A stretch of 55,868 nt of DNA from an uncultured Dokdonia sp. GTDB lineage: Bacteria > Bacteroidota > Bacteroidia > Flavobacteriales > Flavobacteriaceae. Position 1 is the stretch's first letter; every line of letters begins with the position of its first letter. A model generated the notes under the pieces. The model ran no database searches. It saw only the letters and a list, made by a program, of their open reading frames with translations, and had not been told where the DNA came from. The stretch spans positions 1 to 55,868 of the forward strand of contig NZ_CALEMI010000025.1 in NCBI RefSeq assembly GCF_937910895.1, written 5' to 3'. Positions 3,196-49,955 of the stretch are shown here, one piece after another. The position numbers and the translations under genes are program-made.

Positions 3196-4635
3196 TTATT
3201 TTAATATAAATACGTTACCATAGGTCACATATTTCTCAGCTTGTAAGGCATCCATTAATACTCCATAATCCTCTTGTTTAAGGCAATTGACAAGTATCAC
3301 CGTACTTTGCGTCTGCTGATCGTAAAAACTTGTTAAGAAGGAGGTGTCTAGTTGTATATTTTTAGGAATGTCAGCAAACTGTTTTTGTAATATAGGTAAA
3401 ATAGTACGCTGATCTTTATCTACAACAATGAGTTTTGTTCTATTGCTTTCGCGAAAGCGTATAAAAGATTTTTCACTATCAATGGGACTAGAGAAATAAG
3501 CAGATCGCATTCTAAAACGTTCTCTAACCCCAGCAAAATAGACATCTATTAAAGCTTCATCTTCTGTTTGTGAAAAGATGTTGAGGTTATTCATAAGAAT
3601 ATCAAGATCGGTAATTGCTTTTGGAAATGCTTCTCCAAAAAGAGCAATTGCTTTGTCTATAAACGCCTGATCAATAGTTCGGTTGGAGTCCATATAGGAT
3701 TTTACAAGCGGATATAATTTTTTACCATAGCCATTTACATACTCAAAGCTATACCATTCTCTTGGATCTATTTTTCCATTCAGTTGCTCATACGCCCATC
3801 CATTACCGACCGCAGTTGCCAGTCCTTCGTCAAAAAAGTCGTACGCCACCGCAGCATACGGATTGCTAGAGGTGGTAAACCAAGTATCTATATCTTTTTG
3901 GAGTGCTAAAGGTTGTGCATCAAATAAGATATGATTCATCTCATGGATGGCAATTCCTATAATGTCTTGGGCTTCTTTTTCTCTTTTGGAAAGGTAGGAA
4001 CAGATCAGGTTATTTCCTTTTGGGATTGCGGTAGTCCCACCACTTTCTAAGGGAATAGGATACAACATGATTTTAAAGGGTGTCGTTTTTGACCAGCCGC
4101 TTCCTAAGAATACATCTACTTTATTGAATAATGTTTCTATTTGTGGAGCATAGGGACGTAGTGCTTCTTCCATACGTCTTCTACTTATTTCTGTAGGTTT
4201 CCAAATATGACGAGTATAATAAGGGAGTACACCTCTTAAAATGGCAATAAGTTCGGTATGATCATTAGGCGGTAAAAAACCAATCGTACGTGTGGCAAAG
4301 TCATCTATACTTGTTGCGTTTGCACTGGCAATCCATAATAAATCCATGGTACTTATAAACGGATGTCTTTTTTCAGGAAATTGCTCTCTGTGTAGACTTG
4401 CTTGCACGTCTATTTTTGAAAAACGTTCTGATAGTAATTGAAAAGTCCTATCGTTTCCAACGGCGGAATCAATGAATTGTTTGTAAGAAGGCGCTGTGCC
4501 AGGTTGATTGCTCGCAGCAGCAATAAAACTGAGGGTTCCTAAGATTTCGTTATGCGCTATTTCAATAAAGTCTTTTTGGGCAAAAAGGGATAATTGAAAG
4601 CATAAAAGCATGTATGTAAGGGAAACTGTTTTCAT
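3196..4635 (-). CDS. Exported HExxH zinc metallopeptidase-like protein
   Basis: About 479 residues with a signal peptide (MKTVSLTYMLLCFQLSLFAQ). I chose the ATG at 4635 because the seven upstream codons would put charged residues ahead of the signal sequence. The middle has IAIHEMNHILFDA (HExxH near residues 231-235) and, about 35 residues on, FFDEGLATA, whose Glu fits a third zinc ligand, as in gluzincin-type peptidases. No named family is recognised with certainty. The palindrome at 3445-3458 is encoded as RFRES in the C-terminal third. Substrate unknown. Confidence 0.65.
   Translation of the reverse strand: MKTVSLTYMLLCFQLSLFAQKDFIEIAHNEILGTLSFIAAASNQPGTAPSYKQFIDSAVGNDRTFQLLSERFSKIDVQASLHREQFPEKRHPFISTMDLLWIASANATSIDDFATRTIGFLPPNDHTELIAILRGVLPYYTRHIWKPTEISRRRMEEALRPYAPQIETLFNKVDVFLGSGWSKTTPFKIMLYPIPLESGGTTAIPKGNNLICSYLSKREKEAQDIIGIAIHEMNHILFDAQPLALQKDIDTWFTTSSNPYAAVAYDFFDEGLATAVGNGWAYEQLNGKIDPREWYSFEYVNGYGKKLYPLVKSYMDSNRTIDQAFIDKAIALFGEAFPKAITDLDILMNNLNIFSQTEDEALIDVYFAGVRERFRMRSAYFSSPIDSEKSFIRFRESNRTKLIVVDKDQRTILPILQKQFADIPKNIQLDTSFLTSFYDQQTQSTVILVNCLKQEDYGVLMDALQAEKYVTYGNVFILK
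3445..3458. repeat. Palindrome GCTTTCGCGAAAGC, copy in a metallopeptidase gene
   Basis: Perfect 14-bp copy; encoded as part of RFRES on the minus strand. Confidence 0.9.
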
Positions 4636-4709
4636 TGATTTGATCTTGATTGACATGGCAAAGGACGAAAAAAATAATGGAATGTGACGTGTTTAGAAGT
4701 GTTATCCTA

Positions 4710-5579
4710 TTACCACCAAACAACAAAACACTTCTCAATAGATGCCGCTGGTTTTTTAATCCACATCATAGGTGCTTGTTTTCGGAAGTGTTTCTCCTGT
4801 ATTGCAGGGATTATTTCATCATAAGAAGACCAAGTCACCTTTTCATGTGGTGTATGAATCCACTCATATTTGTAGGTAATATAATATTGGTTTGCTTTGA
4901 ACGCATCGGTTTTAAAATCTTGCATACGGATCCAAAAGCCTAGGATACAATTTGTGTTTAAGGGATGTATGGATGGAATGGATGTATTGTAAGGTGTAAA
5001 TAATTGTCCTATAAATAGTACTTGTTGTTCTAGTTCAGAAGCTTCTATACCTAGTGAAGCAAGCGTTTGTTGTCCTTCTTCTGTGTAAAGTAATGGGAGT
5101 TGCTTCTGTTTTGTTTTCTTTAGTTTGGCAAAAAACGCATCTTTTCGATTAGGACCAATGAGCCGATGGATAGGTTCAGAAATGGTAGGATCTATGATGT
5201 AAAATTTATAGGAAAGTTCTAGGTGAAGAAGTTTTTTGCTACTTCGGCTAGGCTCAGCACAGGTTTCGTACTCCTGCCTAGCCGGCAGGCAGGAGCGCAT
5301 AATAAAGTCTAGTTCTCCTAAGGTATCATTCCCTTTTTTTATCTGAATGTTATGTGCAACTACCTCATAGACATTTGAGTGTGATATCAATTGATGAAAA
5401 ATATATTCTATTTGATGCCCTAATCGTAACTTCTCAGGAATGGGCTGTGGTTCAAAATGCGTAAGATCTAATGGTGGTATTTCAAATTGCTGAAGTCCAA
5501 ACTGTGTTTGTTCCCAAAGGGAAGGAGATGCTAAAAAACCGTGTATATGTTTCACAACCGTAAAGATACTGTTTGTCAA
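4710..5579 (-). CDS. DUF1853 family protein with a repeat-encoded insertion
   Basis: 289 residues. It shows the DUF1853 pattern: RLGHQIEYIF near 52-61, TLGELDFIM at 86-94, LHLELSYKFY at 118-127 and GPNRKD at 142-147. The E/D ... ExxxK spacing is reminiscent of PD-(D/E)XK nuclease folds, but function in this family is unknown. Residues about 95-114 (starting RSCLPARQEYETC) interrupt what should be two adjacent core strands and are encoded by a hairpin-bearing dispersed repeat (5240-5298). The frame survives, but activity could be impaired. The gene follows the LprI-like gene with a 2-nt gap, so the two are probably co-transcribed. Confidence 0.7.
   Translation of the reverse strand: MTNSIFTVVKHIHGFLASPSLWEQTQFGLQQFEIPPLDLTHFEPQPIPEKLRLGHQIEYIFHQLISHSNVYEVVAHNIQIKKGNDTLGELDFIMRSCLPARQEYETCAEPSRSSKKLLHLELSYKFYIIDPTISEPIHRLIGPNRKDAFFAKLKKTKQKQLPLLYTEEGQQTLASLGIEASELEQQVLFIGQLFTPYNTSIPSIHPLNTNCILGFWIRMQDFKTDAFKANQYYITYKYEWIHTPHEKVTWSSYDEIIPAIQEKHFRKQAPMMWIKKPAASIEKCFVVWW
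5240..5298. repeat. Hairpin-bearing dispersed repeat inserted in the DUF1853 gene
   Basis: ACTTCGGCTAGGCTCAGC and CAGGTTTCG match the repeat at 2128-2155. The second half is a strong inverted repeat: CTCCTGCCT (5271-5279), centre AGCCGGC, AGGCAGGAG (5287-5295). The inserted length is a multiple of three and has no stop in the host frame. Confidence 0.75.
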
Positions 5580-5581
5580 TT

Positions 5582-5998
5582 TTAGTCTCCACTTATTTCT
5601 TCGTACAAATCTGTCAAATATAAAACACGCTCTCTTAGGTGTCTCTTTTCATAACTTAGTGCTGCGGCTCTTGCCAGAGAACCACCTTGATAGTGTTTCT
5701 GATAATACGAATAATACAACTGCACTTGTGCATTATGAAAGGCACTCCACGTTGCTTGGCTTGCTTCAAGTAATGCTACATCCAGAAGTTTAGGATTTGA
5801 TTGTAATTTCTGTAAAACAGTTTCCATTTCGGCTTGCCACGCTTCGAGAGCTTGTTTTTCACAATTTATAGATCCTATTGTTGTAGGGGTCGCTTGTTCT
5901 ATGCAACGGTTATTTTCAATATCTATAGAATGTTTTTGATCTTGTCCATAACTAGATATAGTTACTAAGAATACGAGGCTAAGAAATAAGTTTTTCAT
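5582..5998 (-). CDS. Exported LprI-like (DUF1311) domain protein
   Basis: 138 residues with a signal peptide ending near SSYGQ. The mature part has paired cysteines (RCIEQA...INCEKQ) followed by helices with LLEASQATWSAFHNAQ, which fits the lysozyme-inhibitor LprI N-terminal domain (DUF1311), where a Trp lies in the last helix. Family members are periplasmic or lipoproteins; only a few have a demonstrated lysozyme-inhibitor role, so the function here is inferred from fold only. It is first in a probable two-gene unit with the DUF1853 gene. Confidence 0.65.
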   Translation of the reverse strand: MKNLFLSLVFLVTISSYGQDQKHSIDIENNRCIEQATPTTIGSINCEKQALEAWQAEMETVLQKLQSNPKLLDVALLEASQATWSAFHNAQVQLYYSYYQKHYQGGSLARAAALSYEKRHLRERVLYLTDLYEEISGD

Positions 5999-6350
5999 AC
6001 GCGTTGATTTATGCCAGGTAGTATGTACAATCTAAAAATACTATAAATTAATAATATGTATCAGCTAGACTACTATTTTATGGGGAGTTTTTCTTGTGTA
6101 TTTGGCTATTGCTATGTTTTAGGTTTAAAAGTAAAAAGTAGATAGTTAACTGATAACAGATAGCAGTATTCTGTAATTTTACCATTTTGGGTTAATTATT
6201 TATTTAAAAAAGGCAATACGATGTGAAGCCAATAACTAAATTGCTATAATTAACAGCTAATAGGGAATGACTTGAGAGATGCATCTAGCTTCTTTCTTGC
6301 AAGTTTGCGACAATTCTAGATCAGTGAAGCAATACCCTTATTAAAACTAC

Positions 6351-6380
6351 GGAGGTTTTCTATATGAAGCCTCCTTTTTT
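6351..6380 (+). terminator. Orphan terminator-like hairpin
   Basis: GGAGG (6351-6355) pairs with CCTCC (6370-6374), extended by TTTC/GAAG pairing, and is followed by six T on the plus strand. The nearest genes on both sides are on the minus strand, so it may end an unannotated RNA or be a relic. Confidence 0.5.
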
Positions 6381-6381
6381 A

Positions 6382-6466
6382 TTAGTGAAACACTATTTTG
6401 TAAAGTCTTAAAGTCGCATACAAAATTGGTAGTTGAACTAATCCCGCTTTTTTCAGCAGGATCTAT
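6382..6466. repeat. 85-bp intergenic repeat, full copy
   Basis: Begins TTAGTGAAAC and ends with AGTTGAACTAATCCCGCTTT and AGCAGGATCT. The same order of blocks occurs at 25111-25194 and, more diverged, at 52982-53037. Confidence 0.75.
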
Positions 6467-7442: not shown

Positions 7443-7456
7443 GCTTTCGCGAAAGC
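7443..7456. repeat. Palindrome GCTTTCGCGAAAGC, intergenic copy
   Basis: Perfect copy in the 271-bp gap between the dioxygenase gene and the small HExxH gene. Confidence 0.9.
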
Positions 7457-10203: not shown

Positions 10204-11571
10204 CTAGTTTCTAATAATCTTATTCGGAAACGCAACAAGGCTTTCGTGTCCGTCTTTTCCTATGGCTGCGACGCCAAAAAAGAAATTATCTACCACAATA
10301 CCTTCAAGTTCATATTCGGTAACATTTCCTACCAGTCGTGCGTTATCCCAAGTAGGTGAGGTAGTATCTCTCCAATAAATTTTATAGGCGACAGCACCTT
10401 CTACTGCACTCCAGGTAAATTTTGCATTTGGTTGTACGATCCCGCCAATACCCACACTTTCTGGTGCAGGTGGAGCCCATGCAATACTTGCTAAGTTGAT
10501 GGCATTGACAGCTGTTAGTTTTGCAGCATAGTCAAAATTTACGTGTTCAAACGTATCTCCATAGTTGATTCCGTTTTCGGTACGAATATCTTGGTGTTGT
10601 TGGGTATAATTTTCGTGGGCTTCCATAATACGAATTCCTGCGAATCCAGCATCATTAAACGGACGATGATGTCCGCCACGTCCAAAACGATCCAGACGAT
10701 AAATCATCATAGGATTCATTTCTGGCATATAGGTTTTTACCGATTTATGAATATAGCGTGCTAACTGACGTGAGATTCCATCCACTTCACCTCCGTAACG
10801 ACGTCTTGCACTACGCTGGTTTTCTGTTTCGGTAGGAGGGACAGGTTCTGAAAAAATTCGGAAGCTTCGGTTATCGATCACGCCATCTACGCCCGTGATG
10901 TTTCCGATCATATCATTGTTTAAAATCCCGATGATGCCCCATTGGTTTGCTTTCGCGAAAGCGGCCAATCCCTGACCCCCAAAGAGTCCTTGCTCTTCTC
11001 CCGAAAGTCCAACATATATAATACTATTTTCAAATGTATATTTTGAAAGAACACGCGCTGCTTCTATCGTTCCCGCCATCCCACTTGCATTATCATTGGC
11101 TCCTGGTGAATCTGATGTGTAATCGGTAGGATCTGTAACACGGCTATCAATGTCACCACTCATAATAATATATCGGTTTGGATACTTGGTACCACGTTGT
11201 ATGGCAACCACATTGACGACTTCTACATCTTTTACAATCCGACCATTACGCCCTTTTTCTACCAAATCTTTTTGATAAAAAACTTCCAAACAGCCATTAC
11301 AGTTTTTTGAAGTCGCATCAAACTGACCTTTGATCCATCTGCGAGCAGCACCAATGCCACGTGTTTGTGACACGGTATCACTTAGGGTATGGCGTGTGCC
11401 AAATTCGGTAAGTGTTTTTACATCTTTCTTGATTCTATCGGCAGAGACGGCATCTATGATATCATAGATTCGAGTATCGGTTTGTGCTGTGAGGCTGAAC
11501 GTTGCTACAAAGAAACTTATGAATAAAAAAGCGAAAAGGGTTTTTACAATGGAATAGGGTTTGTGTGGCAT
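10204..11571 (-). CDS. Exported M28-family metallopeptidase with C-terminal FnIII-like domain
   Basis: 455 residues with a signal sequence (about 8-30). M28 core: SPGANDNASGMAGTIEAARV (bridging Asp160), GLSGEEQGLFG (Glu192-193), NNDMIGN and a C-terminal HENYTQQHQD. The first zinc ligand, normally His in GaHxDS, is replaced: the sequence reads SGDIDSR. Residues about 365-455 look like a fibronectin type III module (FTWSAVEGAVAYKIYWRDT). The palindrome at 10949-10962 encodes AFAKA in a variable loop. Expected to be an exopeptidase acting outside the cytoplasm; the ligand change may alter the metal site or be a subgroup feature. Confidence 0.82.
   Translation of the reverse strand: MPHKPYSIVKTLFAFLFISFFVATFSLTAQTDTRIYDIIDAVSADRIKKDVKTLTEFGTRHTLSDTVSQTRGIGAARRWIKGQFDATSKNCNGCLEVFYQKDLVEKGRNGRIVKDVEVVNVVAIQRGTKYPNRYIIMSGDIDSRVTDPTDYTSDSPGANDNASGMAGTIEAARVLSKYTFENSIIYVGLSGEEQGLFGGQGLAAFAKANQWGIIGILNNDMIGNITGVDGVIDNRSFRIFSEPVPPTETENQRSARRRYGGEVDGISRQLARYIHKSVKTYMPEMNPMMIYRLDRFGRGGHHRPFNDAGFAGIRIMEAHENYTQQHQDIRTENGINYGDTFEHVNFDYAAKLTAVNAINLASIAWAPPAPESVGIGGIVQPNAKFTWSAVEGAVAYKIYWRDTTSPTWDNARLVGNVTEYELEGIVVDNFFFGVAAIGKDGHESLVAFPNKIIRN
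10949..10962. repeat. Palindrome GCTTTCGCGAAAGC, copy in the M28 gene
   Basis: Perfect copy, encoded as AFAKA. Confidence 0.9.
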
Positions 11572-15743: not shown

Positions 15744-18536
15744 TTATACTTTTTCTTTTAAATAATGTCCTGTGTAGGATTTTTTATTTTTAGCCACTTC
15801 TTCAGGAGTCCCTTGTGCCATGATATTCCCTCCATTTTTACCTCCTGTTAACCCGAGATCAATCACATAATCTGCACATTTTACCAAATCCATATTGTGC
15901 TCTACGACAATAATACTATGTCCTTTTTGAATCAGCGCTTCAAAAGAAGCAATAAGTTTCTTAATATCATGAAAATGTAACCCTGTAGTAGGCTCATCAA
16001 ATATAAACAGAGCTTTGTCTTTGGTTGTCCCTTTGACAAGGAAAGAAGCAAGCTTGATACGCTGTGCTTCTCCACCTGATAGGGTAGAAGAGCTTTGACC
16101 TAAGGTAACATACCCTAAACCTACATCTTGAAGTGGTTTTAACTTACGAGTAATTTTTACTTCGTTATGTTCAGAAAAGAAGGCAACAGCATCATCTATG
16201 GTCATTGTCAGGATATCATCAATATTCTTATCATTAAAGGTGACTTCGAGGACTTCTTTTTTGAACCGTTTTCCTTTACAATTTTCACATTCCAAATGCA
16301 CATCTGCCATAAATTGCATTTCAATAGTCACTTCGCCTTCTCCTTTACAGGTCTCACAACGCCCTCCGTCTACATTAAAAGAAAAATGCTTCGATTTGTA
16401 ACTCCGTATTTTACTCAGCTTCTGATTTTCATATAGTTTACGAATATCATCATAAGCTTTAATATAGGTCACAGGATTGGAACGCGAGGATCTTCCTATT
16501 GGGTTTTGATCTACAAACTCTACGGTTTTTACAGTATCAAAGTTTCCTTTGATCTCCGTAAATTGTCCTGCTTTTTGTCCATAACCGCCTATCTCTTTCA
16601 ATAGAGCAGGATATAAAAGTTTACGCACTAGTGTACTCTTTCCACTACCAGAAACTCCAGTAACCGCAGTAAATACACCCAGAGGAAACCGAACATCAAT
16701 ATTTTTTAAGTTATTTTCTCTGGCGCCTATAATGTCTACATAAAAACCGGTTGTTCTCCTTGTTGTTGGGACAGCAATTTTTTTCGTTCCATTGAGGTAT
16801 TGCGCGGTTAGAGAATCACTAGCAAGAATATCTTGATAACTCCCTGTAGCAACTACGTGACCACCAAAGGTTCCTGCTTCGGGACCTATATCAATAATTT
16901 CATCAGATGCTTTCATAATGTCTTCATCGTGTTCAACAACAATGACGGTATTTCCAAGATCACGAAGTGATTTAAGAACATCTATTAATTTTTCAGTATC
17001 TTTTGGGTGGAGCCCTATGCTTGGCTCGTCCAAAATATACATAGATCCCACAAGACTACTTCCCAAGGATGTCGCCAGATTAATACGTTGTGACTCTCCT
17101 CCCGAAAGGGTATTTGATTTACGATTGAGCGTTAAGTAATCTAAGCCAACTTTGGATAAGAATTCAAGTCGACTATTGATTTCTTGTAAAAGACGTTTGG
17201 CAATCGTCGTATCATATTCATTTAACTGCAACTCTTTAAAATAGTCGGCGACTTCATTGAGAGGCAACGTGACCAAATCAATGATGTTTTTATCTCCTAC
17301 TTTTACGTATGTCGCTTCTGGTCTTAGGCGTTTTCCTTTGCAAGTGTTACATTTTGTTTTTCCGCGATAGCGAGAAAGCATCACTCGATTTTGAATTTTA
17401 TAGGCTTTGGATTCCAGAAATTGAAAAAATTGATTGATTCCTTCAAAATGCTCATTGCCTTCCCATAATAGTTGTTTCTGCTCTTCTGTAAGTTCAAAAT
17501 AGGGCTTGTGGATAGGGAAATCAAATTTATAGGCACTATTGACGAGTTGGTCTCTGTAATAACTCATGCTTTCTCCTCTCCATGGGAAAACACCGTTTTC
17601 AAACACAGACAGCCCTGTATTTGGAATCACAAGATCTTCATCTATGCCAATCACATCCCCGTACCCTTCACACGTAGGACAAGCACCATACGGGTTGTTG
17701 AAGCTAAATAAGTGTACATTAGGTTCTAAGAATGTCATCCCGTCTAGCTCAAATTTATTAGAGAAATGTCTCCGACTTTGATCGCTTAAGGATTCTATAA
17801 ATAATTCTCCTTTTCCTTCAAAAAAAGCAGTTTGTACGGCATCTGCCAATCGGTTATTAAAATCTTCGTCATCAGGATTTGTGACAATCCGGTCTACGAC
17901 CAGAAGCACATCAGCGGCTTTTATTTTTTTTACATCATCTATAGCATCAATCCGTTTTACATCGTCTTTAACTTTTATTCGCGCGTATCCTTGTTGTTGA
18001 AGGGCTTTGAGTTTGTCCTGTAATTTCCGTCCTTTTTCCAGATGAATAGGGGCGAGGAGTAGGAGTTTTTCCGCTTTCGCGAAAGCGTTAACAAACTTCA
18101 CCACGTCTGTAACCGTGTCTTTTTTGACTTGATTACCAGAAATAGGCGAAATAGTTTTCCCAATGCGTGCATATAATAATTTGAGGTAATCATAAATCTC
18201 TGTCGAAGTTCCTACCGTAGATCTTGGATTCGTAGAGTTTACTTTTTGCTCTATGGCAATAGCAGGAGCAATCCCTTTGATGTAATCTACTTTTGGTTTG
18301 TCCAGCCGTCCTAAAAACTGTCTAGCATAGGACGAAAGACTTTCTACATAACGTCGCTGTCCCTCTGCATACAAGGTATCAAAGGCTAAACTGGATTTTC
18401 CAGAACCAGAAAGTCCCGTAATCACAACTAATTTATTACGCGGAATAATGACATCAATATTCTTAAGATTATGAAGTTTTGCTCCTTTGATAATAATATT
18501 TTCCTTCGGATTTACAAGCGAAATGTCTTCTAACAT
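15744..18536 (-). CDS. uvrA: Excinuclease ABC subunit A
   Basis: About 930 residues, usual UvrA length. Two ABC ATPase halves are visible: Walker [10 protein letters not shown] (N-terminal) and GVSGSGKST (C-terminal), each with a signature LSGGE and a Walker B ([24 protein letters not shown]), plus zinc modules CPTC...CNTC and CETCKGEG...CENCKGKR. UvrA dimers find bulky DNA lesions and load UvrB in nucleotide excision repair. I take the ATG at 18536 (MLEDISLV) rather than 18551, because a -7 promoter box at 18559-18566 puts the transcript start close to 18552. The palindrome at 18073-18086 encodes AFAKAEK in a variable loop of the N-terminal half. Confidence 0.95.
18073..18086. repeat. Palindrome GCTTTCGCGAAAGC, copy inside uvrA
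   Basis: Perfect copy, encoded as AFAKA at a position variable among UvrA proteins. Confidence 0.9.
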
Positions 18537-18558
18537 AGTATTTTTTTGCATCTGGAAA

Positions 18559-23635: not shown

Positions 23636-24439
23636 TTGACAATTACATTTTTAGGTACTGGAACATCTCAAGGAATTCCCGTTATAGGAAGCAATCATCC
23701 TGTCTGTTTAAGCGACGATCCTAGAGATACGCGCCTACGGGTTTCTGTGCTCATTGAGTGGGAAGACTATCATTACGTGATAGATTGCGGTCCTGATTTT
23801 AGGATGCAGATGCTGAGTACGCTTTCGCGAAAGCGCACCCCTTCTGGAGACCTCGTTCCTTTGCATGGGATTTTATTTACCCATGAACACGCAGATCACG
23901 TGGCGGGATTGGACGATATCCGTCCATTTGTATTTGGACAAGGCGATGTTCCTATTTATGCACATACACGTGTATTGAATATTCTTAAAGAGCGATTTGA
24001 CTATATTTTTGCTACCAAAAATAGATATCCTGGCGCACCAAAAGTAAGTGCCTTTGAGGTAATCAATGGGCAATCCATTTCATTAGGAGGTATTGATGTG
24101 GTCCCGATTGAAGGATATCACGGCAATTTGCAGGTTTTTGGCTATCGTTTTGATCGTATTGCATACCTGACTGATATTAAAACAATCGCTCCTGAAGAAA
24201 TAGAGAAATTACAAGGGCTCGATATCCTTGTGATTAATGCGTTACGTTTTGAAGAACATCAAACGCATCTTAATGTAAGCGAAGCATTAGCACTCATTGA
24301 AAAAATTAAACCAAAACGAACCTATTTTACACATATAAGTCATCGTATGGGATTTCACGCCGAAGTAGAAGCACAGCTTCCAGACACGGTACATCTTGCC
24401 TATGATGGATTAACTTTAACGACGACCGATGAAACGTAA
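23636..24439 (+). CDS. Metallo-beta-lactamase-fold hydrolase, PhnP-like
   Basis: 267 residues. The start is TTG at 23636: homology to ITFLGTGTSQGIPVIG begins at once and no ATG is available upstream. Zinc site THEHADHVAGLDD (His83, His85, Asp87, His88), followed by EGYHG and THISHRMG, and Asp at YDG near the end. Family members hydrolyse phosphodiesters such as cyclic ribose phosphates; the actual substrate is unknown. The palindrome at 23821-23834 encodes LSRKR between the first strands and the metal site. The gene overlaps the next by 11 nt. Confidence 0.85.
   Translation: MTITFLGTGTSQGIPVIGSNHPVCLSDDPRDTRLRVSVLIEWEDYHYVIDCGPDFRMQMLSTLSRKRTPSGDLVPLHGILFTHEHADHVAGLDDIRPFVFGQGDVPIYAHTRVLNILKERFDYIFATKNRYPGAPKVSAFEVINGQSISLGGIDVVPIEGYHGNLQVFGYRFDRIAYLTDIKTIAPEEIEKLQGLDILVINALRFEEHQTHLNVSEALALIEKIKPKRTYFTHISHRMGFHAEVEAQLPDTVHLAYDGLTLTTTDET
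23821..23834. repeat. Palindrome GCTTTCGCGAAAGC, copy in the MBL gene
   Basis: Perfect copy, encoded as LSRKR. Confidence 0.9.
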
Positions 24440-30278: not shown

Positions 30279-30327
30279 ACGCAGAATTTTGTTTTTCTTT
30301 GAGCTAAAATTACATGAAAAATTACAT

Positions 30328-33300
30328 ATGAAGATAAAATATACACTTGTTTATAGTTTATTTCTGTTTTTCCTATTCGGTTGTGCTACGTACGCACCTC
30401 AATATGCAGAGGTAGAAGGGCAAAGTACGCTTTCGCGAAAGCGTATACCAGCAACTTCTTTTTACTTAATAGGGGATGCCGGTGGTGCCAAAGCCAACGG
30501 GAGTACAGATGCCTTAATAGCCCTTAAAAAAGTAATAGATACGGCAAAAACTCAGAATGACTACACTATTTTTCTGGGAGATAATATTTACCCTGAAGGT
30601 TTGCCTGTAGAAGGTGGGAAAGGAAGAGAAGCTGCAGAACACAAATTACAGGCGCAAGTAGATGCCGTTTCTGGCTTTAAAGGAGAGGTCGTTTTTATAC
30701 CTGGAAATCATGATTGGTACAGTCAAGGACTTAATGGGTTAAAGCGTCAAGAAAAATTTATAGAAGATGCCTTAAATGACAAGGAAGCTTTCCAACCTGA
30801 AAATGGCTGTCCTATAGAATCTATCTCTATTTCTGATGAGATTGAACTTATTATCATAGATACACAATGGTATTTAGAAAATTGGGATAGAAATCCAACT
30901 ATGAATGATGAGTGTGAGATTCGTACACGAACAGACTTTTTTCTGGAGATAGAAAGTGAATTCAAAAAGAACAATGAGAAAACCATTCTTGTGGCGATGC
31001 ACCATCCTATGTATACCAATGGGATTCATGGAGGAGCTTTTGCGATAGAGAAACATTTATTTCCTTTTCAATCAAATATTCCATTACCAGGTCTTGCTTC
31101 CTTAGTAACACAAGTACGTGGTCAAGGTGGGGTTTCTATACAGGATAAAGTGAATAAGCGATATACGGCACTTATGGACAGGCTCGCCACACTTTCTTAT
31201 GATACCAATAAAGTGATTTTTGTTTCTGGACATGAGCATAGCCTCCAGTATATAGAGCATGATGGTATCAAACAGATTGTAAGTGGTGCGGGTGCAAAAA
31301 AGTCGGCGGCACGTTTACGTAATGATGGGTTATTTGCCTATGGCGGACAAGGATTTGCTATACTTGATATATATGAAGATGGCGCTTCAGAAGTTCGCTA
31401 TTACTCTGCTGTGAACGGTGAGCCTGCTTTGCTCTTTGAAAAAAAGGTATTTGATAAAGATATTGAATATGATGTAAGCGGTCTTCCTTCACAATTTGAA
31501 CCGTATACAGAAGCTTCTATTTATTCAAAAGAAGAAGTAGATAAAAGTGATGGATTTAAAAAACTTTGGGGAAATCATTACAGATCGGTATATGGGACAA
31601 AAGTAAAAGTACCTGTATTGACTCTAGATACGCTCAAAGGTGGTATTACCATTGATAGAAAAGGAGGAGGACATCAAACACGTTCATTACGTCTGGTAGA
31701 TCCCGACGGAAGAAATTTTGCCTTACGTGCAGTTAAGAAAAGTGCGGTTCAGTTCTTACAGTCCGTCGTGTTTAAAGACAATTTTATACAAGAAGAGTTT
31801 AGAGACACCTTTACAGAAGACGTGATTCTAGACTTTTATACTTCCAGTCATCCGTATGCAACCCTAGCTGTAGGTACACTAGCCGATGCTATTGATGTAT
31901 ATCATACCAATCCAGAATTGGTGTGGATGCCAAAACATCCCGCACTAGGAAAGTATAACGAAGACTATGGAGATGAACTCTATGTGATAGAAGAGCGTCC
32001 AGATGATGGATTTATAGACGTACCTTCTTTTGGAACCCCTGACAAGATTGAAAGTACATCAGATTTACTAGAAAACCTTCGCGATGATGAAGAATATAAG
32101 TTAGATGAGTCTTCCTATATACGAGCACGTTTGTTTGATATGCTTATCGGAGATTGGGATCGACACGCAGATCAGTGGCGCTGGGCACGTTTTGATACTA
32201 AAGATCGTAAAGTTTACAAACCTATCCCAAGAGATAGAGATCAGGTATTTTCAAATTATGATGGCACTTTACTTTCGATTGCAAAAGCTTTAATACCGCC
32301 TGCAAGACAATTCCAAACGTATGGGCCTGACTTAAAAAATATCGAATGGATGAATATAGCAGGGAGCAAACTCGACATTGCCTTGCTTCCAAATGCGACT
32401 CGCAAAGATTGGCTAGCACAAGCAGCCTTTATTCGAGAAAACCTAAGTGATGCAGCCATTGATGAGGCTTTTTTAAAATTTCCTAAAGAGGTACAGGATG
32501 AGAAGCTTGAGGATGTAAAACAATCGCTTAAACTACGTCGAGAGAATCTTCTTGATATCGCATCAGAATACTTTGACCAACTTTCAAAACTTGTAGTCAT
32601 TAAAGGAACTGATAAAGACGATCATTTTGAAATCACGAGAGAAGCAAACGGCACACGTATTCAAGTTTCTCGTATTAAAGGTGGAAAAGTAATGAAGCCT
32701 TTTATAGACCGATTAGTAGATTCTAAAGAAACCAAAGAAATATGGGTGTATGGTTTAGACGACGATGACACCTTTCACGTAAGTGGAAAAGGAAAGAAAC
32801 CTATTTTTATGAGAATTATAGGAGGTCAAAACAACGATGTTTATACCATAGATGACGGTCGTCGTCTTAAAGTATACGATCATAAAACAAAACCGAATAC
32901 TGTTGTAAAAAAAGGTGGTGCAAATTTTAAAAGATCTAATATTTATACAAATAATACTTACGACTTTAATAAAACGATTACCAATGTGAATAGTATTCTC
33001 CCATCTATAGGTTTTAATCCTGATGATGGGATTAGTATCGGACTTCTGGACACCTATACCATAAAGGGGTTTAAAAATGATCCTTACCATAGAAAGCACG
33101 TATTTAAAGCAGGTTATTTTTTCGCTACAAGTGGATTTGATCTTAGTTATGACGGTGAGTTTGCTAACTCATTAGGGCTGTGGAATCTTAAAATAGGGGC
33201 ACGCTTTACAAGTGAAAATTTCGCACTTAACTTCTTCGGTTTTGGTAATGAAAGTGTCAATATGGATGATGAGCTAGATTTTGATTTTAATCGTGTTAGA

Positions 33301-34026
33301 ACGGGTATAAACGAAGTACATTTTGGTATTGTAAAAGACAATGATTACGGAAGTAGATTAGGACTTATTACCAAAGTAGAACGTATTGAAATAGAAAATA
33401 ATGACGGACGTTTTATCACACAAGCATTTGATGATGACTCTACAATTTTTAGCTCACAGTTTTTTGCTGGAGTTGAGGGATCGTACGAATTTTTAAGTGC
33501 AAACAACCCTGCAAACCCATCCAAAGGAATGGAGTTTTTACTTAAAGTTGGATCTAAAGTAAATCTAGAAGATACAGATCGTATTTATGGCTACGTATCG
33601 CCTACGCTTGGTTTTTATAATGCGCTTTCGCGAAATAAAAAACTGGTACTCAAAACAAAGGTTCAAGGGCAGTTTAATATAGGAGATTCGTTTGAATTTT
33701 ATCAAGGAGCAACCTTAGGTGCTCGTAATGGATTGCGCGGATTCAGAAATGAGCGTTTTACGGGAGAGTCAGCCATTGCAGGGAGTGCAGATCTTAGATA
33801 TAGTTTTAATCGTTTTAAGACAGGATTGTTGCCTATTCAAATAGGCATTTTTGGAGGAGCCGATGTGGGTCGTGTATGGCTTGATGGAGAAGATAGTGAT
33901 ATCTGGCACAATTCCTTAGGAGGTGGCTTCTGGATCAATGCAGTCGATATACTTTCTGGGCAATTTGGCGCTTTTAACTCTGATGACGGACTGCGGATCA
34001 ATTTTGGTTTTGGTGTACGCTTATAG
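30328..34026 (+). CDS. Metallophosphoesterase fused to an outer-membrane beta-barrel
   Basis: About 1232 residues from the ATG at 30328. Signal peptide with lipobox (LFGCATY). Calcineurin-type phosphoesterase domain (about 35-340): GDAGG, LGDNIYPEG, PGNHDWYS, MHHPMYTNG and SGHEHSLQ are the metal-binding motifs. A middle region (about 400-800) has GDWDRHADQWRWA and RDRDQVF, reminiscent of a kinase-like or dimetal site but not assigned. The C-terminal about 300 residues are beta-rich and end GAFNSDDGLRINFGFGVRL, like D15/BamA surface-antigen barrels, with LGARNGLRGFRNERFTGE just before. The palindrome at 30429-30442 encodes LSRKR shortly after the lipobox Cys; a partial one lies at 33624-33635. 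Location: outer membrane. Substrate unknown. Confidence 0.82.
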   Translation: MKIKYTLVYSLFLFFLFGCATYAPQYAEVEGQSTLSRKRIPATSFYLIGDAGGAKANGSTDALIALKKVIDTAKTQNDYTIFLGDNIYPEGLPVEGGKGREAAEHKLQAQVDAVSGFKGEVVFIPGNHDWYSQGLNGLKRQEKFIEDALNDKEAFQPENGCPIESISISDEIELIIIDTQWYLENWDRNPTMNDECEIRTRTDFFLEIESEFKKNNEKTILVAMHHPMYTNGIHGGAFAIEKHLFPFQSNIPLPGLASLVTQVRGQGGVSIQDKVNKRYTALMDRLATLSYDTNKVIFVSGHEHSLQYIEHDGIKQIVSGAGAKKSAARLRNDGLFAYGGQGFAILDIYEDGASEVRYYSAVNGEPALLFEKKVFDKDIEYDVSGLPSQFEPYTEASIYSKEEVDKSDGFKKLWGNHYRSVYGTKVKVPVLTLDTLKGGITIDRKGGGHQTRSLRLVDPDGRNFALRAVKKSAVQFLQSVVFKDNFIQEEFRDTFTEDVILDFYTSSHPYATLAVGTLADAIDVYHTNPELVWMPKHPALGKYNEDYGDELYVIEERPDDGFIDVPSFGTPDKIESTSDLLENLRDDEEYKLDESSYIRARLFDMLIGDWDRHADQWRWARFDTKDRKVYKPIPRDRDQVFSNYDGTLLSIAKALIPPARQFQTYGPDLKNIEWMNIAGSKLDIALLPNATRKDWLAQAAFIRENLSDAAIDEAFLKFPKEVQDEKLEDVKQSLKLRRENLLDIASEYFDQLSKLVVIKGTDKDDHFEITREANGTRIQVSRIKGGKVMKPFIDRLVDSKETKEIWVYGLDDDDTFHVSGKGKKPIFMRIIGGQNNDVYTIDDGRRLKVYDHKTKPNTVVKKGGANFKRSNIYTNNTYDFNKTITNVNSILPSIGFNPDDGISIGLLDTYTIKGFKNDPYHRKHVFKAGYFFATSGFDLSYDGEFANSLGLWNLKIGARFTSENFALNFFGFGNESVNMDDELDFDFNRVRTGINEVHFGIVKDNDYGSRLGLITKVERIEIENNDGRFITQAFDDDSTIFSSQFFAGVEGSYEFLSANNPANPSKGMEFLLKVGSKVNLEDTDRIYGYVSPTLGFYNALSRNKKLVLKTKVQGQFNIGDSFEFYQGATLGARNGLRGFRNERFTGESAIAGSADLRYSFNRFKTGLLPIQIGIFGGADVGRVWLDGEDSDIWHNSLGGGFWINAVDILSGQFGAFNSDDGLRINFGFGVRL
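30429..30442. repeat. Palindrome GCTTTCGCGAAAGC, copy after a lipobox
   Basis: Perfect copy with extended flanks GTAC...GTATAC; encodes LSRKR in the region just after the lipid-anchor Cys. Confidence 0.9.
33624..33635. repeat. Partial palindrome GCTTTCGCGAAA
   Basis: 12 of the 14 bases of the palindrome, encoding LSR in the barrel region. Confidence 0.7.
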
Positions 34027-38801: not shown

Positions 38802-40775
38802 CTACTTCACAAGGAGTCGTAATGTCTGAGTACCTTCTCTAGTTTTAATCTGTGCGAGATACATTCCTGAGCTAAGTGCTAATGGAATTTGTGTGATTCC
38901 ATTAAAAGCTGTTGTTGCCACTTCCTGTCCTAGAATCGTATAGATGGTTAAGGTTCCTGATTGATTAGGCGCTTGGATGGTTACTTGATCTTGTGCAGGG
39001 TTTGGATATAAACGAATATTTTGAGCGGCAAATGTATCTGTGCTTAATGGAAGATTATAGACTTCGCCCACGAGATCTCCCCAAATATATTCGGCAAGAT
39101 CAGGAAGGTCTATAAACGGATTCCTATTAAATTGCCAGGTATGAACGATGTTATTTCTGTTGAGTTCGTAATCATCTGCTGGGTCATTGCGATACCAATC
39201 TAGTAAAATATCAAGATCGCCTAAGGCACCCACAGTATCATTGGATGGGTTTCCAGAAACAACTTCAAGACCATTGTAGCGAATGGTTAAAAAGAAAATT
39301 CCTCTTGCCACATCGCCTTGCCAGCTTCCTTGATTGTTTTCAGGACCGCTATATTCTCCATAATCTTGATTCCCTCGTGCACTATTTTCTGGACCATCAG
39401 TAGCACGTAATCCGTGAGCGTCACTATTGGCGTGACGTAAGGAATCTGCTTTTGTCTCAAAGAAAATGTCAATACCATCGGCTATTTCGTCTAAATCAAT
39501 ATCATTAAATCCACCACGAGATCTTGGGTAAGTGTGCTCTCTATTCCAAAGTCCAGCATTACTTCCGCCAGAGGTTTGAAAATCTAATTTAGGGCGTTGT
39601 TGCTCTGTATATAAAAGCCAGACTTGGTTGCTATTTAACGGACTTTGATCTGCCTCTTTTAAAATATCAATCACATCTGCATACGTTTGTGCTCTGACCA
39701 CATCTGGATTTGCAATAATATTTTGTATGGCTTGGACAAGGGCTTCACCCGCAAGACCATCTATGGAATCATAGTATCCTTCAGGTTGTGTACTTTCCAC
39801 TTGACCAAATGTTGGTTCAAGCGGAGTTCCCCATGCCGCCATGGTAAAATCATTATCAATCACACGGATTTGGTTATTATCATTCAGTCTTGAAAAGGTA
39901 TCTGGAAGTTCGCCAAAGGTAATTTGTAAGACTTCGTCTCCTTCATCATCGGTATCATCTATGAGTTGAATAGTTGTCGTTGCTGTATTGGATCCATTAG
40001 GAATGGTGATCATCGTAGCTCCAGAAAAATCTGCCGTGTTAAATGTACCATTCGAAAGAGAAATCGTAAAACTCAGGTCTTCTGTAAGATCTTCTTGTGT
40101 TGTAAATGTAATGTCAAAAGAGTCACCTTCATTGTATTGATCACTAGGTGTTGTAAAGCCAATTCCGTTGATAAAAACACCAGAACCATCATTAAGAACG
40201 CCTGGTGTAGGTGTTGCTACAAAATAGGATCCATCATTATCACGCTGTATGGATTCTGTAGTCTGGTTGCCGTTTTCGCCTTCGTTGGTTTGTACAATAC
40301 CACCTAATAACTCTAATAATAAAGTATCATCTGCATCATTGGTGTCGTGAGCGAGTGCATCAATAAGATTGGTTGTTGTTGCTAATGTACCATCTGGAAA
40401 ATCGGATGCATTTCCTAGATAAATAGCCGCTGCATCTGCTCCGTTTTGAATGGTACTATCAAATATGATAAAATCTCCAATGGGGGACACATCGTTATTA
40501 GATATTAAGAATATTCCGTTAATATCTGTTGTAAAGCCATCGAGGTCTAAAGCAAAATAACTAGAGTCATTTCCGCTAGTGGAGCCATTGAAAAGAACCA
40601 AGACAAAGCCGTCTAAAGACATTTGAGGGGTGTCTGACTTTAATTCTATAAACTCCATGGTATCAGTACTAGGAGTGTCAGAATCTAATTCATTAATAAC
40701 AATTTGAGCCTGAATAGTATATGTAAATAATACTAAACAAGCGCTTAGGATAAGTTGATAAGTGCGCATACGCAA
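38802..40775 (-). CDS. T9SS-exported endonuclease I with LTD- and Calx-beta-like domains
   Basis: 657 residues. Signal peptide (ends IQAQ, residue 24). Residues 25-190 resemble a lamin-tail-like domain (IVINELDSDTPSTDTMEFIEL). Residues about 200-310 look Calx-beta-like (YNEGDSFDITFTT, DEGDEVLQITFG). Residues about 315-575 are an endonuclease I domain with GLWNREHTYPRSRGGF (His414) and SDAHGLRAT. The last about 75 residues are a type IX secretion sorting domain (IRLYPNPAQDQV). Expected role: extracellular DNase for nutrient acquisition. The start may be residue 3 (40769), because TACCTTTG at 40773-40780 looks like a -7 box overlapping the first codons. Confidence 0.87.
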   Translation of the reverse strand: MRMRTYQLILSACLVLFTYTIQAQIVINELDSDTPSTDTMEFIELKSDTPQMSLDGFVLVLFNGSTSGNDSSYFALDLDGFTTDINGIFLISNNDVSPIGDFIIFDSTIQNGADAAAIYLGNASDFPDGTLATTTNLIDALAHDTNDADDTLLLELLGGIVQTNEGENGNQTTESIQRDNDGSYFVATPTPGVLNDGSGVFINGIGFTTPSDQYNEGDSFDITFTTQEDLTEDLSFTISLSNGTFNTADFSGATMITIPNGSNTATTTIQLIDDTDDEGDEVLQITFGELPDTFSRLNDNNQIRVIDNDFTMAAWGTPLEPTFGQVESTQPEGYYDSIDGLAGEALVQAIQNIIANPDVVRAQTYADVIDILKEADQSPLNSNQVWLLYTEQQRPKLDFQTSGGSNAGLWNREHTYPRSRGGFNDIDLDEIADGIDIFFETKADSLRHANSDAHGLRATDGPENSARGNQDYGEYSGPENNQGSWQGDVARGIFFLTIRYNGLEVVSGNPSNDTVGALGDLDILLDWYRNDPADDYELNRNNIVHTWQFNRNPFIDLPDLAEYIWGDLVGEVYNLPLSTDTFAAQNIRLYPNPAQDQVTIQAPNQSGTLTIYTILGQEVATTAFNGITQIPLALSSGMYLAQIKTREGTQTLRLLVK

Positions 40776-42685: not shown

Positions 42686-43142
42686 ATTGCGTGTTTAGGC
42701 TATTAGTATCGATATTATCATGTTGTTACAGGGATTGCTTCTTTTTACGCTTTCGCGAAAGCGTATATAACCCTCATAAAAGTTTTAAATATACACTTAT
42801 CTATTAAACGGATATTCTTGTATCCAATGATAGCCACGATCCATTAATGGAATAATAAGTAGCGTAGAAAGCATGTGATAAAGCGAAATAGAAAATGATT
42901 TTTAATAGACATAGGATAATTGATGGATGCTTAGTTAGCACTTAAAATACTTATTTTTAGGATGAGCTATTAAAAATTATTTTTTTTGTAATCTTTTATA
43001 CAGCTATACATAGACGTTTTTGAGTCATACTTTAGAGGAGATTTTTACCTTATAAAAATAGGAATCATTTTTTTAGTATTAAAAAATAACAGTTCCTTGT
43101 AACAAAAGATATGAGTACTCGTCTCCCTAATAACTAACCGAA
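42686..43142. other. Intergenic region with a palindrome
   Basis: No ORF. The palindrome is at 42749-42762 (extended flanks TTTAC...GTATAT). The rest is AT-rich upstream DNA of the sigma-factor operon; no unambiguous TAnnTTTG box is seen. Confidence 0.5.
42749..42762. repeat. Palindrome GCTTTCGCGAAAGC, intergenic copy
   Basis: Perfect copy between the divergent ybjQ and sigma-factor genes. Confidence 0.9.
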
Positions 43143-45502: not shown

Positions 45503-45516
45503 GCTTTCGCGAAAGC
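45503..45516. repeat. Palindrome GCTTTCGCGAAAGC, intergenic copy
   Basis: Perfect copy between two convergent transcription units. Confidence 0.9.
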
Positions 45517-45606: not shown

Positions 45607-45649
45607 AATTGTATAATTATAAGTGTATTACAAACGAGATCAAGCTTAT

Positions 45650-47350: not shown

Positions 47351-47382
47351 TATGTTAATTGTTTTAGTGAGATAATTATATA

Positions 47383-47414
47383 CAAATCTACATAAAAAAA
47401 TCTATCACTTGCAA
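47383..47414 (-). promoter_or_regulatory. Promoter of the T9SS repeat protein gene
   Basis: TTGC (47414-47411), 20 nt, TAGATTTG (47390-47383) on the minus strand, a good match to the Bacteroidota consensus. The leader contains TATCTCACTAAAACA, shared with the leader of the small gene at 53205. Confidence 0.65.
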
Positions 47415-47429
47415 TTTTGATATGAAATA

Positions 47430-47443
47430 GGGGCATTTGCCCC
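47430..47443. promoter_or_regulatory. Inverted repeat GGGGCATTTGCCCC, candidate operator
   Basis: A perfect inverted repeat with a 4-nt centre, 39 nt from the -7 box, the same distance as for the S41 gene site at 2291-2305. Confidence 0.5.
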
Positions 47444-47736
47444 TATTTATAATACGTGTATGTGTAGGGTTTTATAAGGTGTTTTTGCGTGTTCAAAAAT
47501 ATTTTGTAGGATTTTACACTTGTCAATTTTTCTATGTCTAGTTAAAATGAGAGTTCAGGAGGACAAAATTAGAATTTTTATGAGTGAATCTTTCAGCAAT
47601 CTAATTGTTAGAATTATATACTATTTTATTTTTTCTTAGTAAGAAAAATCCTTTTTTAAAATATGGCAAATACGTACTATCAATAAAAAGTTATTCATTT
47701 TTTAATCCTGAAAAACTAAGATATGATAGCATATAA

Positions 47737-47773
47737 AAAAGCCTCAAATAAGCATAACTTATTTGAGGCTTTT
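47737..47773 (-). terminator. Terminator of the SulP gene
   Basis: A 16-bp stem AAAAGCCTCAAATAAG/CTTATTTGAGGCTTTT with loop CATAA, 20 nt past the stop at 47794. Confidence 0.9.
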
Positions 47774-47793
47774 ACAATTATTTTTTATCAGAA

Positions 47794-49443: not shown

Positions 49444-49461
49444 GTGTAAATTTTAAGCTTG

Positions 49462-49469
49462 CAAAGGTA
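49462..49469 (-). promoter_or_regulatory. -7 box of the SulP gene
   Basis: TACCTTTG on the minus strand matches TAnnTTTG, leaving a leader of about 13 nt. Confidence 0.5.
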
Positions 49470-49552
49470 TGTTATTCTATCATGAAGCCCTAAAAGAACC
49501 TTTTGTTTTTACGATAGCGTTTTCGAGAGATTTATGTTTGTATGAAAAGTCC

Positions 49553-49566
49553 GCTTTCGCGAAAGC
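49553..49566. repeat. Palindrome GCTTTCGCGAAAGC, intergenic copy
   Basis: Perfect copy 12 bases from a degenerate one-arm relative (GCGTTTTCGAGA at about 49517). Confidence 0.9.
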
Positions 49567-49604
49567 ATATACCAGATGAATTAAAAAGTGTTTAGAATAT
49601 AAGC

Positions 49605-49860
49605 TTTCAAAAAGACCGCTTTGCTGATAGAATATAGAGAATAGAACATAGAGTTTCTTAAATATGGGGATTTTTAGCTTCTCGCATCCAGCATCCAGCA
49701 TTAAACAAATACCAAACCACAAAAAATCAAATTTTCAAAAAGATCGCTTTGCTGATAGAATAAAGAGAATAGAGTATAGATTTTCTTAAATATGGGGATT
49801 TTTAGCTTCCCGCACCCAGCATCCAGCATCAAACAAATGCCAAACCACAAAAAGTCAAAT
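49605..49860. repeat. 128-bp tandem duplication
   Basis: 49605-49732 and 49733-49860 align along their whole length with few differences; each unit begins TTTCAAAAAGA and contains ATATGGGGATTTTTAGCTTC and a CATCCAGCATC motif. Confidence 0.85.
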
Positions 49861-49941
49861 ACAAAAACTTGCTACTTATAAATTCCATCTTCCTTTCTAA
49901 CTAACAATTCAGTCGTTAAAAATGACAGTTGGGTTTCTTTT

Positions 49942-49955
49942 GCTTTCGCGAAAGC
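49942..49955. repeat. Palindrome GCTTTCGCGAAAGC, upstream of the TPR-like gene
   Basis: Perfect copy within 55 nt of the ATG at 49997. Confidence 0.9.

What the first reader, a model, noticed from the sequence alone, without database searches (positions are those of the whole stretch)
3445..49955. A 14-bp palindrome, GCTTTCGCGAAAGC, recurs eleven times in coding and intergenic DNA
Perfect copies begin at 3445, 7443, 10949, 13312, 18073, 23821, 30429, 42749, 45503, 49553 and 49942; shortened or degenerate ones at 2151, 33624, about 37733 and 51112. By chance a given 14-mer in AT-rich DNA of this length is expected far less than once. Several copies extend to TACGCTTTCGCGAAAGCGTA. In genes it occurs in three reading frames (AFAKA, LSRKR, RFRES), in loops or just after signal peptides, so it is retained as DNA, not as peptide. 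It could be a chromosome-organisation, replication-segregation or uptake-like site.
Basis: partly seen in the sequence, partly recalled or inferred. Interest (0 to 1): 0.75.

Follow-up and report, generated by a model that had tools for sequence, protein, structure and literature searches.

The report
Genome-wide 14-bp palindrome in marine flavobacteria
A marine bacterium carries about 900 exact copies of one 14-letter palindrome, evenly spaced and often kept letter for letter between species, which points to an unrecognised DNA-level signal, perhaps one that marks a cell's own DNA for uptake.

Summary
The 14-mer occurs 878 times in the window's genome (reversed control 0) and 369-905 times in all 18 genomes of its genus, probably Dokdonia. 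A sister genus (g210) and, separately, Nonlabens are also rich; every other genus in the family sample has 0-19 copies. It is kept as DNA: between two species 76% identical, 21 of 24 aligned sites are unchanged against 6% of ordinary 14-mers (10 of 13 in genes, against 13.6% where the protein is identical); between the genus's deeper branches retention is lower. Half of a 129-site sample is intergenic although 9% of bases are. Sites avoid each other (3 of 200 gaps under 1 kb, 42 expected), show no ori/ter trend, and have symmetric flank preferences to about 26 bp without covariation, as for a duplex site bound by a dimer. Nonlabens sites lie elsewhere (0 of 7 shared with g1), so the same word seems to have spread twice. 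I favour a transfer-biased self-DNA tag (0.4); chromosome architecture is the main rival. Pilus ATPase, two methyltransferase families, extra ParB and a Riemerella-type DUF5689 protein do not track the motif. The reader protein is not identified.

The parts
2149..2162 (.). degenerate copy, 1 mismatch (GGTTTCGCGAAAGC), in ORF 933-2246(-)
3445..3458 (.). perfect 14-bp palindrome, in ORF 3196-4656(-)
7443..7456 (.). perfect 14-bp palindrome, intergenic by ORF calls
10949..10962 (.). perfect 14-bp palindrome, in M28 peptidase gene 10204-11571(-); same place occupied in genus-mate L001
13312..13325 (.). perfect 14-bp palindrome in the 20-bp form TAC...GTA, intergenic by ORF calls
18073..18086 (.). 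perfect 14-bp palindrome in the UvrA-like gene 15744-18551(-); present at the same place in 6 of the 16 genus genomes that cover it and in sister-genus genome G230
23821..23834 (.). perfect 14-bp palindrome, in ORF 23636-24439(+)
30429..30442 (.). perfect 14-bp palindrome in the 20-bp form, near the 5' end of metallophosphoesterase ORF 30289-34026(+)
33624..33637 (.). degenerate copy, 2 mismatches at one end, in the same ORF
42749..42762 (.). perfect 14-bp palindrome in the 20-bp form, intergenic by ORF calls
45503..45516 (.). perfect 14-bp palindrome, intergenic by ORF calls
49553..49566 (.). perfect 14-bp palindrome, intergenic by ORF calls
49942..49955 (.). perfect 14-bp palindrome, at the start of ORF 49922-50629(+); 389 bp from the previous copy, the closest pair among the 200 gaps measured

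Best explanation
The palindrome is a sequence-specific duplex-DNA site: a 14-bp core plus weaker symmetric preferences out to about 26 bp on each side, read by a dimeric protein. Shown: genome-wide abundance, exactness, maintenance beyond what protein sequence explains, even spacing, and rich genomes in two separate lineages with sites at different places. Inferred: the dimeric reader, and that the site works as a self-DNA tag. DNA carrying a site would be preferentially acquired, most likely by the type-IV-pilus-independent transformation machinery of Flavobacteriaceae, and recombined. Recombination then restores lost sites and spreads new ones until one site serves each stretch of a few kb, after which a second nearby site brings no further gain. 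The reader protein moved between the Dokdonia/g210 and Nonlabens lineages, and the sites then built up anew in the recipient.
For: Genome-wide: 878 copies in G000, 0 for the reversed control; 18 of 18 genus genomes have 369-905. Sharp: 129 perfect, 6 one-mismatch and 18 two-mismatch copies in 400 kb of G016; none of 209 permuted palindromes of the same composition has a perfect copy. Maintained: 21 of 24 aligned G006 sites identical in G016 at 76% identity, control 6.0%; coding 10 of 13 against 13.6% where 5 aa are identical, intergenic 11 of 11 against 7.9%, with 18 of 42 sites unaligned. Changes are mostly substitutions. Spacing: 3 of 200 gaps under 1 kb, 42 expected. Flanks: C-poor 5' side, G-poor 3' side to about 26 bp, without covariation. 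Spread twice: G230 shares 4 of 4 aligned sites with the pooled g1 set, Nonlabens 0 of 7; the UvrA tree needs two changes. Even spacing, AT-rich flank consensus and many copies inside ORFs are described for uptake sequences (passages of PMC1939737). Pilus-free transformation in Riemerella and own-DNA preference in R. columbina are published (passages and sections of PMC8459023 and PMC7965970).
Against: Retention is weaker between deep branches of the genus: window against G016 1 of 3 and against G006 1 of 3, L001 against G016 0 of 2, though L001 against the window is 2 of 2. Known uptake sequences are not palindromes (PMC1939737 passage). I saw no report of competence in these genera. The pilus ATPase family PF00437 is over cut-off in only 3 of 8 rich genomes, so uptake in the others would have to be pilus-free. 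The longest site-free gap in the G006 region (22.7 kb) holds thiamine-synthesis-like genes rather than an evident mobile island (gene roles judged by eye). Some temperate-phage-like contigs carry sites. One Nonlabens site, in HisRS, is shared with G230. No uptake assay exists.
Confidence: 0.4

Rival explanations
1. Chromosome-architecture site. A dedicated dimeric nucleoid protein binds about 900 evenly spaced sites and organises or coats the whole chromosome in loops or domains of a few kb, like a uniform, much denser counterpart of MatP, SlmA or Noc sites.
For: Palindrome with a long symmetric footprint; near-uniform density (index 0.30, P 0.001 against Poisson) and exclusion under 1 kb; strong per-site conservation.
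Against: No ori or ter trend in 20 sampled stretches, though a uniform architecture factor need not show one. No extra ParB-family gene tracks the motif: one per genome in 7 of 8 rich genomes, two in G000, and 3 of 16 poor genomes also have two. A core architecture factor should not be missing from nearly all related genera nor appear twice with the same word.
Confidence: 0.27
2. HIP-like by-product of methylation and mismatch repair. An orphan methyltransferase marks the site and methyl-directed repair creates and keeps copies until every base lies within repair range of one, as Elhai proposed for HIP1.
For: Iterated palindrome, spacing that saturates at a kb scale, point-mutation dynamics; model read in section 3.4 part 1 of PMC4390886.
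Against: N6/N4 methyltransferase PF01555 is over cut-off in 2 of 7 rich genomes and C5 methylase PF00145 in 5 of 10; G004 and G281 have neither. The core alone is not enriched: of 167 TCGCGA in 400 kb, 141 lie in the 10-mer TTTCGCGAAA (sums). A 14-bp exact unit with long flanks goes beyond usual methyltransferase recognition (recalled). Other methyltransferase families were not tested.
Confidence: 0.1
3. Chi-like end-processing site: palindromic so that a RecBCD/AddAB-type enzyme meets it from either side, sparing self DNA from degradation.
For: Mean gap 4.2 kb, close to E. coli Chi density (recalled); 5' flank G/T-rich.
Against: Known Chi sites are short and directional (recalled); a 14-bp exact core with flanks on both sides fits duplex recognition better. 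Neighbouring genera lack it. The helicase-nucleases were not compared.
Confidence: 0.08
4. Packaging or other transfer bias other than transformation: for example a gene-transfer agent whose packaging enzyme starts at the motif, so that moved fragments carry it.
For: Spacing of about 4 kb with exclusion of close pairs; drive-like maintenance; sites in some phage-like contigs.
Against: No gene-transfer-agent cluster was looked for; lytic Nonlabens phage P12024S has no copy.
Confidence: 0.07
5. RNA-level element (hairpin, terminator or processing site).
For: A transcript of the 20-bp form could fold; intergenic enrichment, highest per bp between convergent genes.
Against: No covariation across flank positions 1-30; symmetric two-change variants are 0 of 18 in G016 and 1 of 4 in Nonlabens G281, little power but no sign of compensation; 65 of 129 copies lie inside genes; by eye no T-run regularly follows the site in the flanks printed.
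Confidence: 0.03

Closest known systems
DNA uptake sequences (Neisseria DUS, Haemophilus USS)
   Same: Many exact copies in and between genes, even spacing, core plus weaker AT-rich flanks (passages and section 5 of PMC1939737); here also separate flank 'dialects' in Nonlabens and g1.
   Different: Palindromic, 14 bp, and near-misses are rare (6 against 129 in G016). The pilus ATPase is missing from 5 of 8 rich genomes tested. Uptake bias not shown.
HIP1, highly iterated palindrome GCGATCGC of cyanobacteria
   Same: Genome-wide palindrome that changes by point mutation (abstract and section 3.4 part 1 of PMC4390886).
   Different: 14 bp not 8; long flank footprint; no shared methyltransferase of the two families tested; inner core not enriched by itself.
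Site-specific nucleoid proteins: MatP/matS, SlmA/SBS, Noc/NBS (recalled)
   Same: Dispersed palindromes of similar length, each bound by a dimer.
   Different: Tens of sites with ori/ter bias in those systems; here about 900 without bias. No extra ParB-family gene tracks it.
Chi of E. coli (recalled)
   Same: Comparable density.
   Different: Chi is an 8-mer read from one side.

Membership tests
DNA uptake sequence (DUS/USS) | Genome-wide over-representation in coding and intergenic DNA | tested here: met
DNA uptake sequence (DUS/USS) | Significant even spacing | tested here: met
   by CV alone significant in both G016 regions, not in G006, G008 or G009, where close pairs are still missing
DNA uptake sequence (DUS/USS) | Core extended by weaker flank preferences | tested here: met
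DNA uptake sequence (DUS/USS) | Non-palindromic word (as described in PMC1939737) | tested here: not met
   the 14-mer is its own reverse complement (equal counts on both strands)
DNA uptake sequence (DUS/USS) | Type IV pilus uptake machinery in the host | tested here: not met
   PF00437 over cut-off in 3 of 8 rich genomes
DNA uptake sequence (DUS/USS) | Preferential uptake of DNA carrying the word | not testable with these tools
   needs an uptake assay
Flavobacterial (Riemerella-type) transformation machinery | DUF5689 protein beside an outer-membrane barrel | tested here: met
   DUF5689 in 29 of 29 panel genomes, each with an upstream open frame whose end looks barrel-like by eye (no family search of it); not specific to rich genomes
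HIP1-type iterated palindrome | Resident methyltransferase for the palindrome's core | tested here: not met
   neither PF01555 nor PF00145 in G004 and G281; other methyltransferase families not tested
HIP1-type iterated palindrome | One-off variants concentrated at the outer positions | tested here: inconclusive
   only 6 one-off variants in 400 kb, at half-site positions 1, 2, 5 and 6
MatP/SlmA/Noc-type nucleoid site | Site density biased to ori or ter | tested here: not met
   flat over 20 stretches of G016
MatP/SlmA/Noc-type nucleoid site | Bound in the cell by a dedicated protein | not testable with these tools
   no ChIP data
Noc/ParB-type site | Extra ParB-family protein in motif-rich genomes | tested here: not met
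Transposed repeat (REP/BIME/MITE) | Copies arrive as insertions with shared flanks | tested here: not met
   differences at aligned sites are mostly substitutions, although a G016 site faces a 14-column gap in G006 and G008 and a few others fall in gapped columns; flanks share only base preferences
Chi | Directional (asymmetric) short word | tested here: not met
   palindrome

The most novel reading that the evidence does not exclude
The first DNA-identity tag known in Bacteroidota: a palindromic 14-bp word read as duplex by an unknown dimeric receptor of a pilus-independent DNA-import route. The receptor jumped between Dokdonia-type and Nonlabens lineages and each time rebuilt hundreds of evenly spaced sites by drive, so that these genera share a common currency of exchangeable DNA.
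Probability: 0.3. Interest if true: 0.9.

Novelty: new variant of a known kind. Interest (0 to 1): 0.72.

Why it matters
To my knowledge few bacterial words of this length are repeated about 900 times and kept this exactly. The case adds an independent example, in another phylum, to the long-open question of how uptake sequences and HIP1 arise and what they do, and it comes with a natural experiment: the same word rich in two separate lineages and nearly absent from close relatives. It also gives a practical watermark of DNA donated by these genera. Whether the reader protein works outside or inside the cell is directly testable in cultivable marine bacteria.

Tried and rejected
Rejected or weakened: chance or codon usage; confinement to the window; ori/ter site; RNA hairpin; mobile insertion; extra ParB/Noc; pilus-based uptake as a general explanation; shared N6/N4 or C5 methyltransferase; DUF5689 protein as the sequence-specific reader. 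Other repeated palindromes were sought in the 80 named loci: the only 14-mer palindrome (of more than two letters) found twice or more was this one, in L001 and L068; these loci are at most 22.9 kb each.

Led nowhere: phage and plasmid collections searched with a 30-base flanked word gave no flavobacterial record (BLAST with such a short query is weak, and these collections may hold few records from the hosts). The idea that site-free stretches are mobile islands was not supported for the one gap examined. I could not compare whole gene contents to find the reader protein.

Literature: no paper in the held library has the 14-mer; the 10-mer core is in 10 papers, unrelated by title; 'highly iterated palindrom' with 'Flavobacteri' gave 0; 'Dokdonia' with 'palindrom' gave 5, judged unrelated from the listing; 'overrepresented palindrom' with 'genome-wide' and 'spacing' gave 0; the listed rows (20 of 29; 15 of 60; 12 of 61) show no report of this motif. 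Subscription papers are mostly not held.
Full report
WHAT IS THERE. The window has 11 perfect copies of GCTTTCGCGAAAGC and 2 more with 1-2 mismatches, against 0.16 expected. Of 14 TCGCGA hexamers in the window, 13 lie inside TTTCGCGAAA. The window's genome G000 (4.81 Mb, 169 contigs) holds 878 copies, and the same pattern read backwards 0: one per 5.5 kb.

WHO HAS IT. All 18 genomes of the genus (G000 and 17 others) have 369-905 copies. In a family sample of 397 genomes, 80 have at least one copy, but only genera g1, g11 (578, 664, 609) and g210 (408, one genome) exceed 19. In a class sample of 395 genomes, 24 have a copy and none but G000 exceeds 4. Names: g11 is Nonlabens, since G433 matches named record L068 at 100% over 2,799 bases. 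g1 is probably Dokdonia: G000's rhodopsin matches the sodium-pump rhodopsin of PDB 3x3b with 558 bits over 275 residues, and I recall its source as Dokdonia eikasta. In a UvrA tree (FastTree, 100 rows, 16 rich) g210 is sister to g1, Leeuwenhoekiella (poor) next, and Nonlabens elsewhere; the label needs two changes, and starred branches force two.

THE SITE. In 400 kb of the complete genome G016 there are 129 perfect copies, 6 with one and 18 with two mismatches; 209 permuted palindromes of the same composition average 0, 0.03 and 0.74. Beyond the core, position -1 is C (88%), -2 mostly A, -3 mostly T. The 5' flank is poor in C and the 3' flank poor in G out to about 26 bp. Nonlabens (G281, 400 kb: 68 perfect, 12 one-mismatch, 4 two-mismatch) has the same core with another flank dialect: -2 is C or T more often than A, and -10 is T in 79%. 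G230 (samples of 42-48% GC) has 35 perfect, 11 one-mismatch and 10 two-mismatch copies in 240 kb, with weaker flanks. Flank positions 1-30 (181 sites) show no left-right covariation beyond their own base preferences. This fits a duplex site contacted by a dimer rather than an RNA or cruciform stem.

WHERE IT SITS. Of 129 copies in G016, 64 are intergenic although about 9% of bases are, and 65 are coding in all three frames (35, 14, 16) (genes are predicted open frames). Shuffling synonymous codons among genes of the sample leaves 0-2 copies against 62. Counts per 20-kb stretch round the G016 chromosome are more even than Poisson (index 0.30, P 0.001) with no ori/ter trend. In 200 gaps (two G016 regions, G011, G006, the window; near-duplicates G008 and G009 and the short G230 list left out), 3 are under 1 kb against 42 expected; the hazard rises to a plateau from about 3-4 kb. 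G008 and G009 have 0 of 42 and 1 of 50 gaps under 1 kb, and G281 0 of 66 against 10.8 expected. The overall CV of gaps is significantly low only in the two G016 regions (0.62, 0.48); in G006, G008 and G009 it is 0.85-0.92 because of single gaps of 22-24 kb.

CONSERVATION. G006 and G016 align over 118.5 kb at 76% identity. Of 24 aligned G006 sites 21 are unchanged; of 26 G016 sites 21 are. Ordinary 14-mers are unchanged in 6.0%. Other pairs: G008-G016 27 of 29 each way (control 18.4%), G006-G009 29 of 31 and 29 of 34 (42.5%), G006-G008 20 of 22 and 20 of 24 (30.0%), G009-G008 38 of 40 and 38 of 39 (23.8%). By class for G006-G016: coding 10 of 13 (control 7.7%; 13.6% where five residues are identical), intergenic 11 of 11 (control 7.9%); 18 of 42 G006 sites could not be aligned. 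Aligned sites may be favoured because they help anchor the alignment. Between deep branches of the genus the few aligned sites do worse: window to G016 1 of 3, window to G006 1 of 3, L001 to G016 0 of 2 (and 0 of 1 back), but L001 to window 2 of 2, with ordinary 14-mers at 1.7-2.8%. Changed sites in the close pairs differ by single bases, mostly C/T. The UvrA site at 18073 is intact in 6 of 16 genus genomes covering it; the other ten differ at the same columns by substitutions only, one in G012 and G004, more in the rest. It is also intact in G230 at about 70% identity. So sites turn over by point mutation within the genus, slowly for their length.

TWO SPREADS. Against the pooled g1 set (window, G016), all 4 aligned G230 sites are shared (4 of 6 in the other direction) at 68% identity, ordinary 14-mers 0.9%; against G016 alone it is 3 of 4 and against G006 alone 0 of 1. 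None of 7 aligned sites is shared between Nonlabens G281 and g1, nor any of 3 against G006; smaller comparisons also gave none. The one exception is a HisRS site shared by G281 and G230. Numbers are small, but they suggest that some sites predate the g1-g210 split and that those of Nonlabens arose separately.

CANDIDATE READERS. ParB family: one per genome in 7 of 8 rich genomes, no extra copy that tracks the motif. Pilus ATPase PF00437: over cut-off in 3 of 8 rich and 3 of 16 poor genomes. PF01555: 2 of 7 rich. PF00145: 5 of 10 rich. DUF5689 (PF18942): 29 of 29. That family is of interest because transposon mutants showed a DUF5689 protein (RA0C_RS04920) and its neighbour (RA0C_RS04915, predicted outer-membrane) to be needed for transformation in Riemerella anatipestifer, by a machinery unlike the known ones (abstract, section 19 and passages of PMC8459023; insertion in RA0C_RS04915 also silenced the next gene). 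R. columbina DNA competes better than foreign DNA in its own transformation, but only A/T-rich k-mers were listed there as possible uptake words (section 16 of PMC7965970). The DUF5689 open frame varies greatly within g1, and in its tree the rich label needs 5 changes, fewer than shuffled labels (mean 8.5) but not one group; the three Nonlabens rows fall in two places.

MOBILE DNA. Lytic Nonlabens phage P12024S has no copy in 35.7 kb. Copies in otherwise poor genomes cluster: in G254 two lie 933 bp apart in what looks by eye like a TolC-type gene among metal-efflux-like genes (no family search). The same 933-bp spacing recurs in G200, G127, G118 and G141 (positions; genes there not examined), which suggests DNA received from a rich genus.

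JUDGEMENT. The pattern (exact, evenly spaced, kept site by site, rich in two lineages with dialect flanks) is what a transfer-biased drive predicts, and the family has transformation by an unusual, apparently pilus-free route. A dense architecture protein predicts the same spacing and conservation but explains the patchy distribution less well. I give the uptake or identity tag 0.4 and architecture 0.27. That the motif is a maintained duplex-DNA signal I hold at about 0.95.

Noticed in passing
L296:6266 and 7199 (G254:C1); same 933-bp spacing in G200, G127, G118, G141: A metal-efflux-like region (by eye) in a motif-poor genome carries the motif twice, 933 bp apart, in a TolC-like gene (AFAKAQ at the signal peptide and ESAFAKAQ further in): a likely watermark of transfer from a motif-rich genus.
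   Followed up: partly
L391-L419: The DUF5689 protein linked to Riemerella transformation is in 29 of 29 genomes but very variable, even within one genus (open frames of 466-670 aa among the rich genomes), while the end of its upstream neighbour looks conserved by eye.
   Followed up: partly
L304-L315 (G230): The sister genus has a higher share of one-mismatch copies (11 against 35 perfect) and weaker flanks than g1, possibly a system in decline or early build-up.
   Followed up: no
G006:C1 about 2977226-2999967: A 22.7-kb site-free gap that holds what look like thiamine-synthesis genes (by eye) rather than a mobile island.
   Followed up: partly
L242, L221, L245 (viral contigs): Phage-like contigs with 2-3 sites; L242 encodes a tape-measure protein. 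Worth testing whether phages of these hosts gain sites.
   Followed up: partly
window 29085-30278 (-): HD-domain protein with a PycTM (Pycsar effector) domain, a possible defence effector, directly beside the site at 30429.
   Followed up: no
window 38802-40775 (-): Endonuclease I domain with a type IX secretion sorting tail, probably a secreted DNase.
   Followed up: no
L315:11409 and G281:C2 near 243 kb: The only site found shared by Nonlabens and another rich genus lies at the same place in what reads as the histidyl-tRNA synthetase gene.
   Followed up: partly
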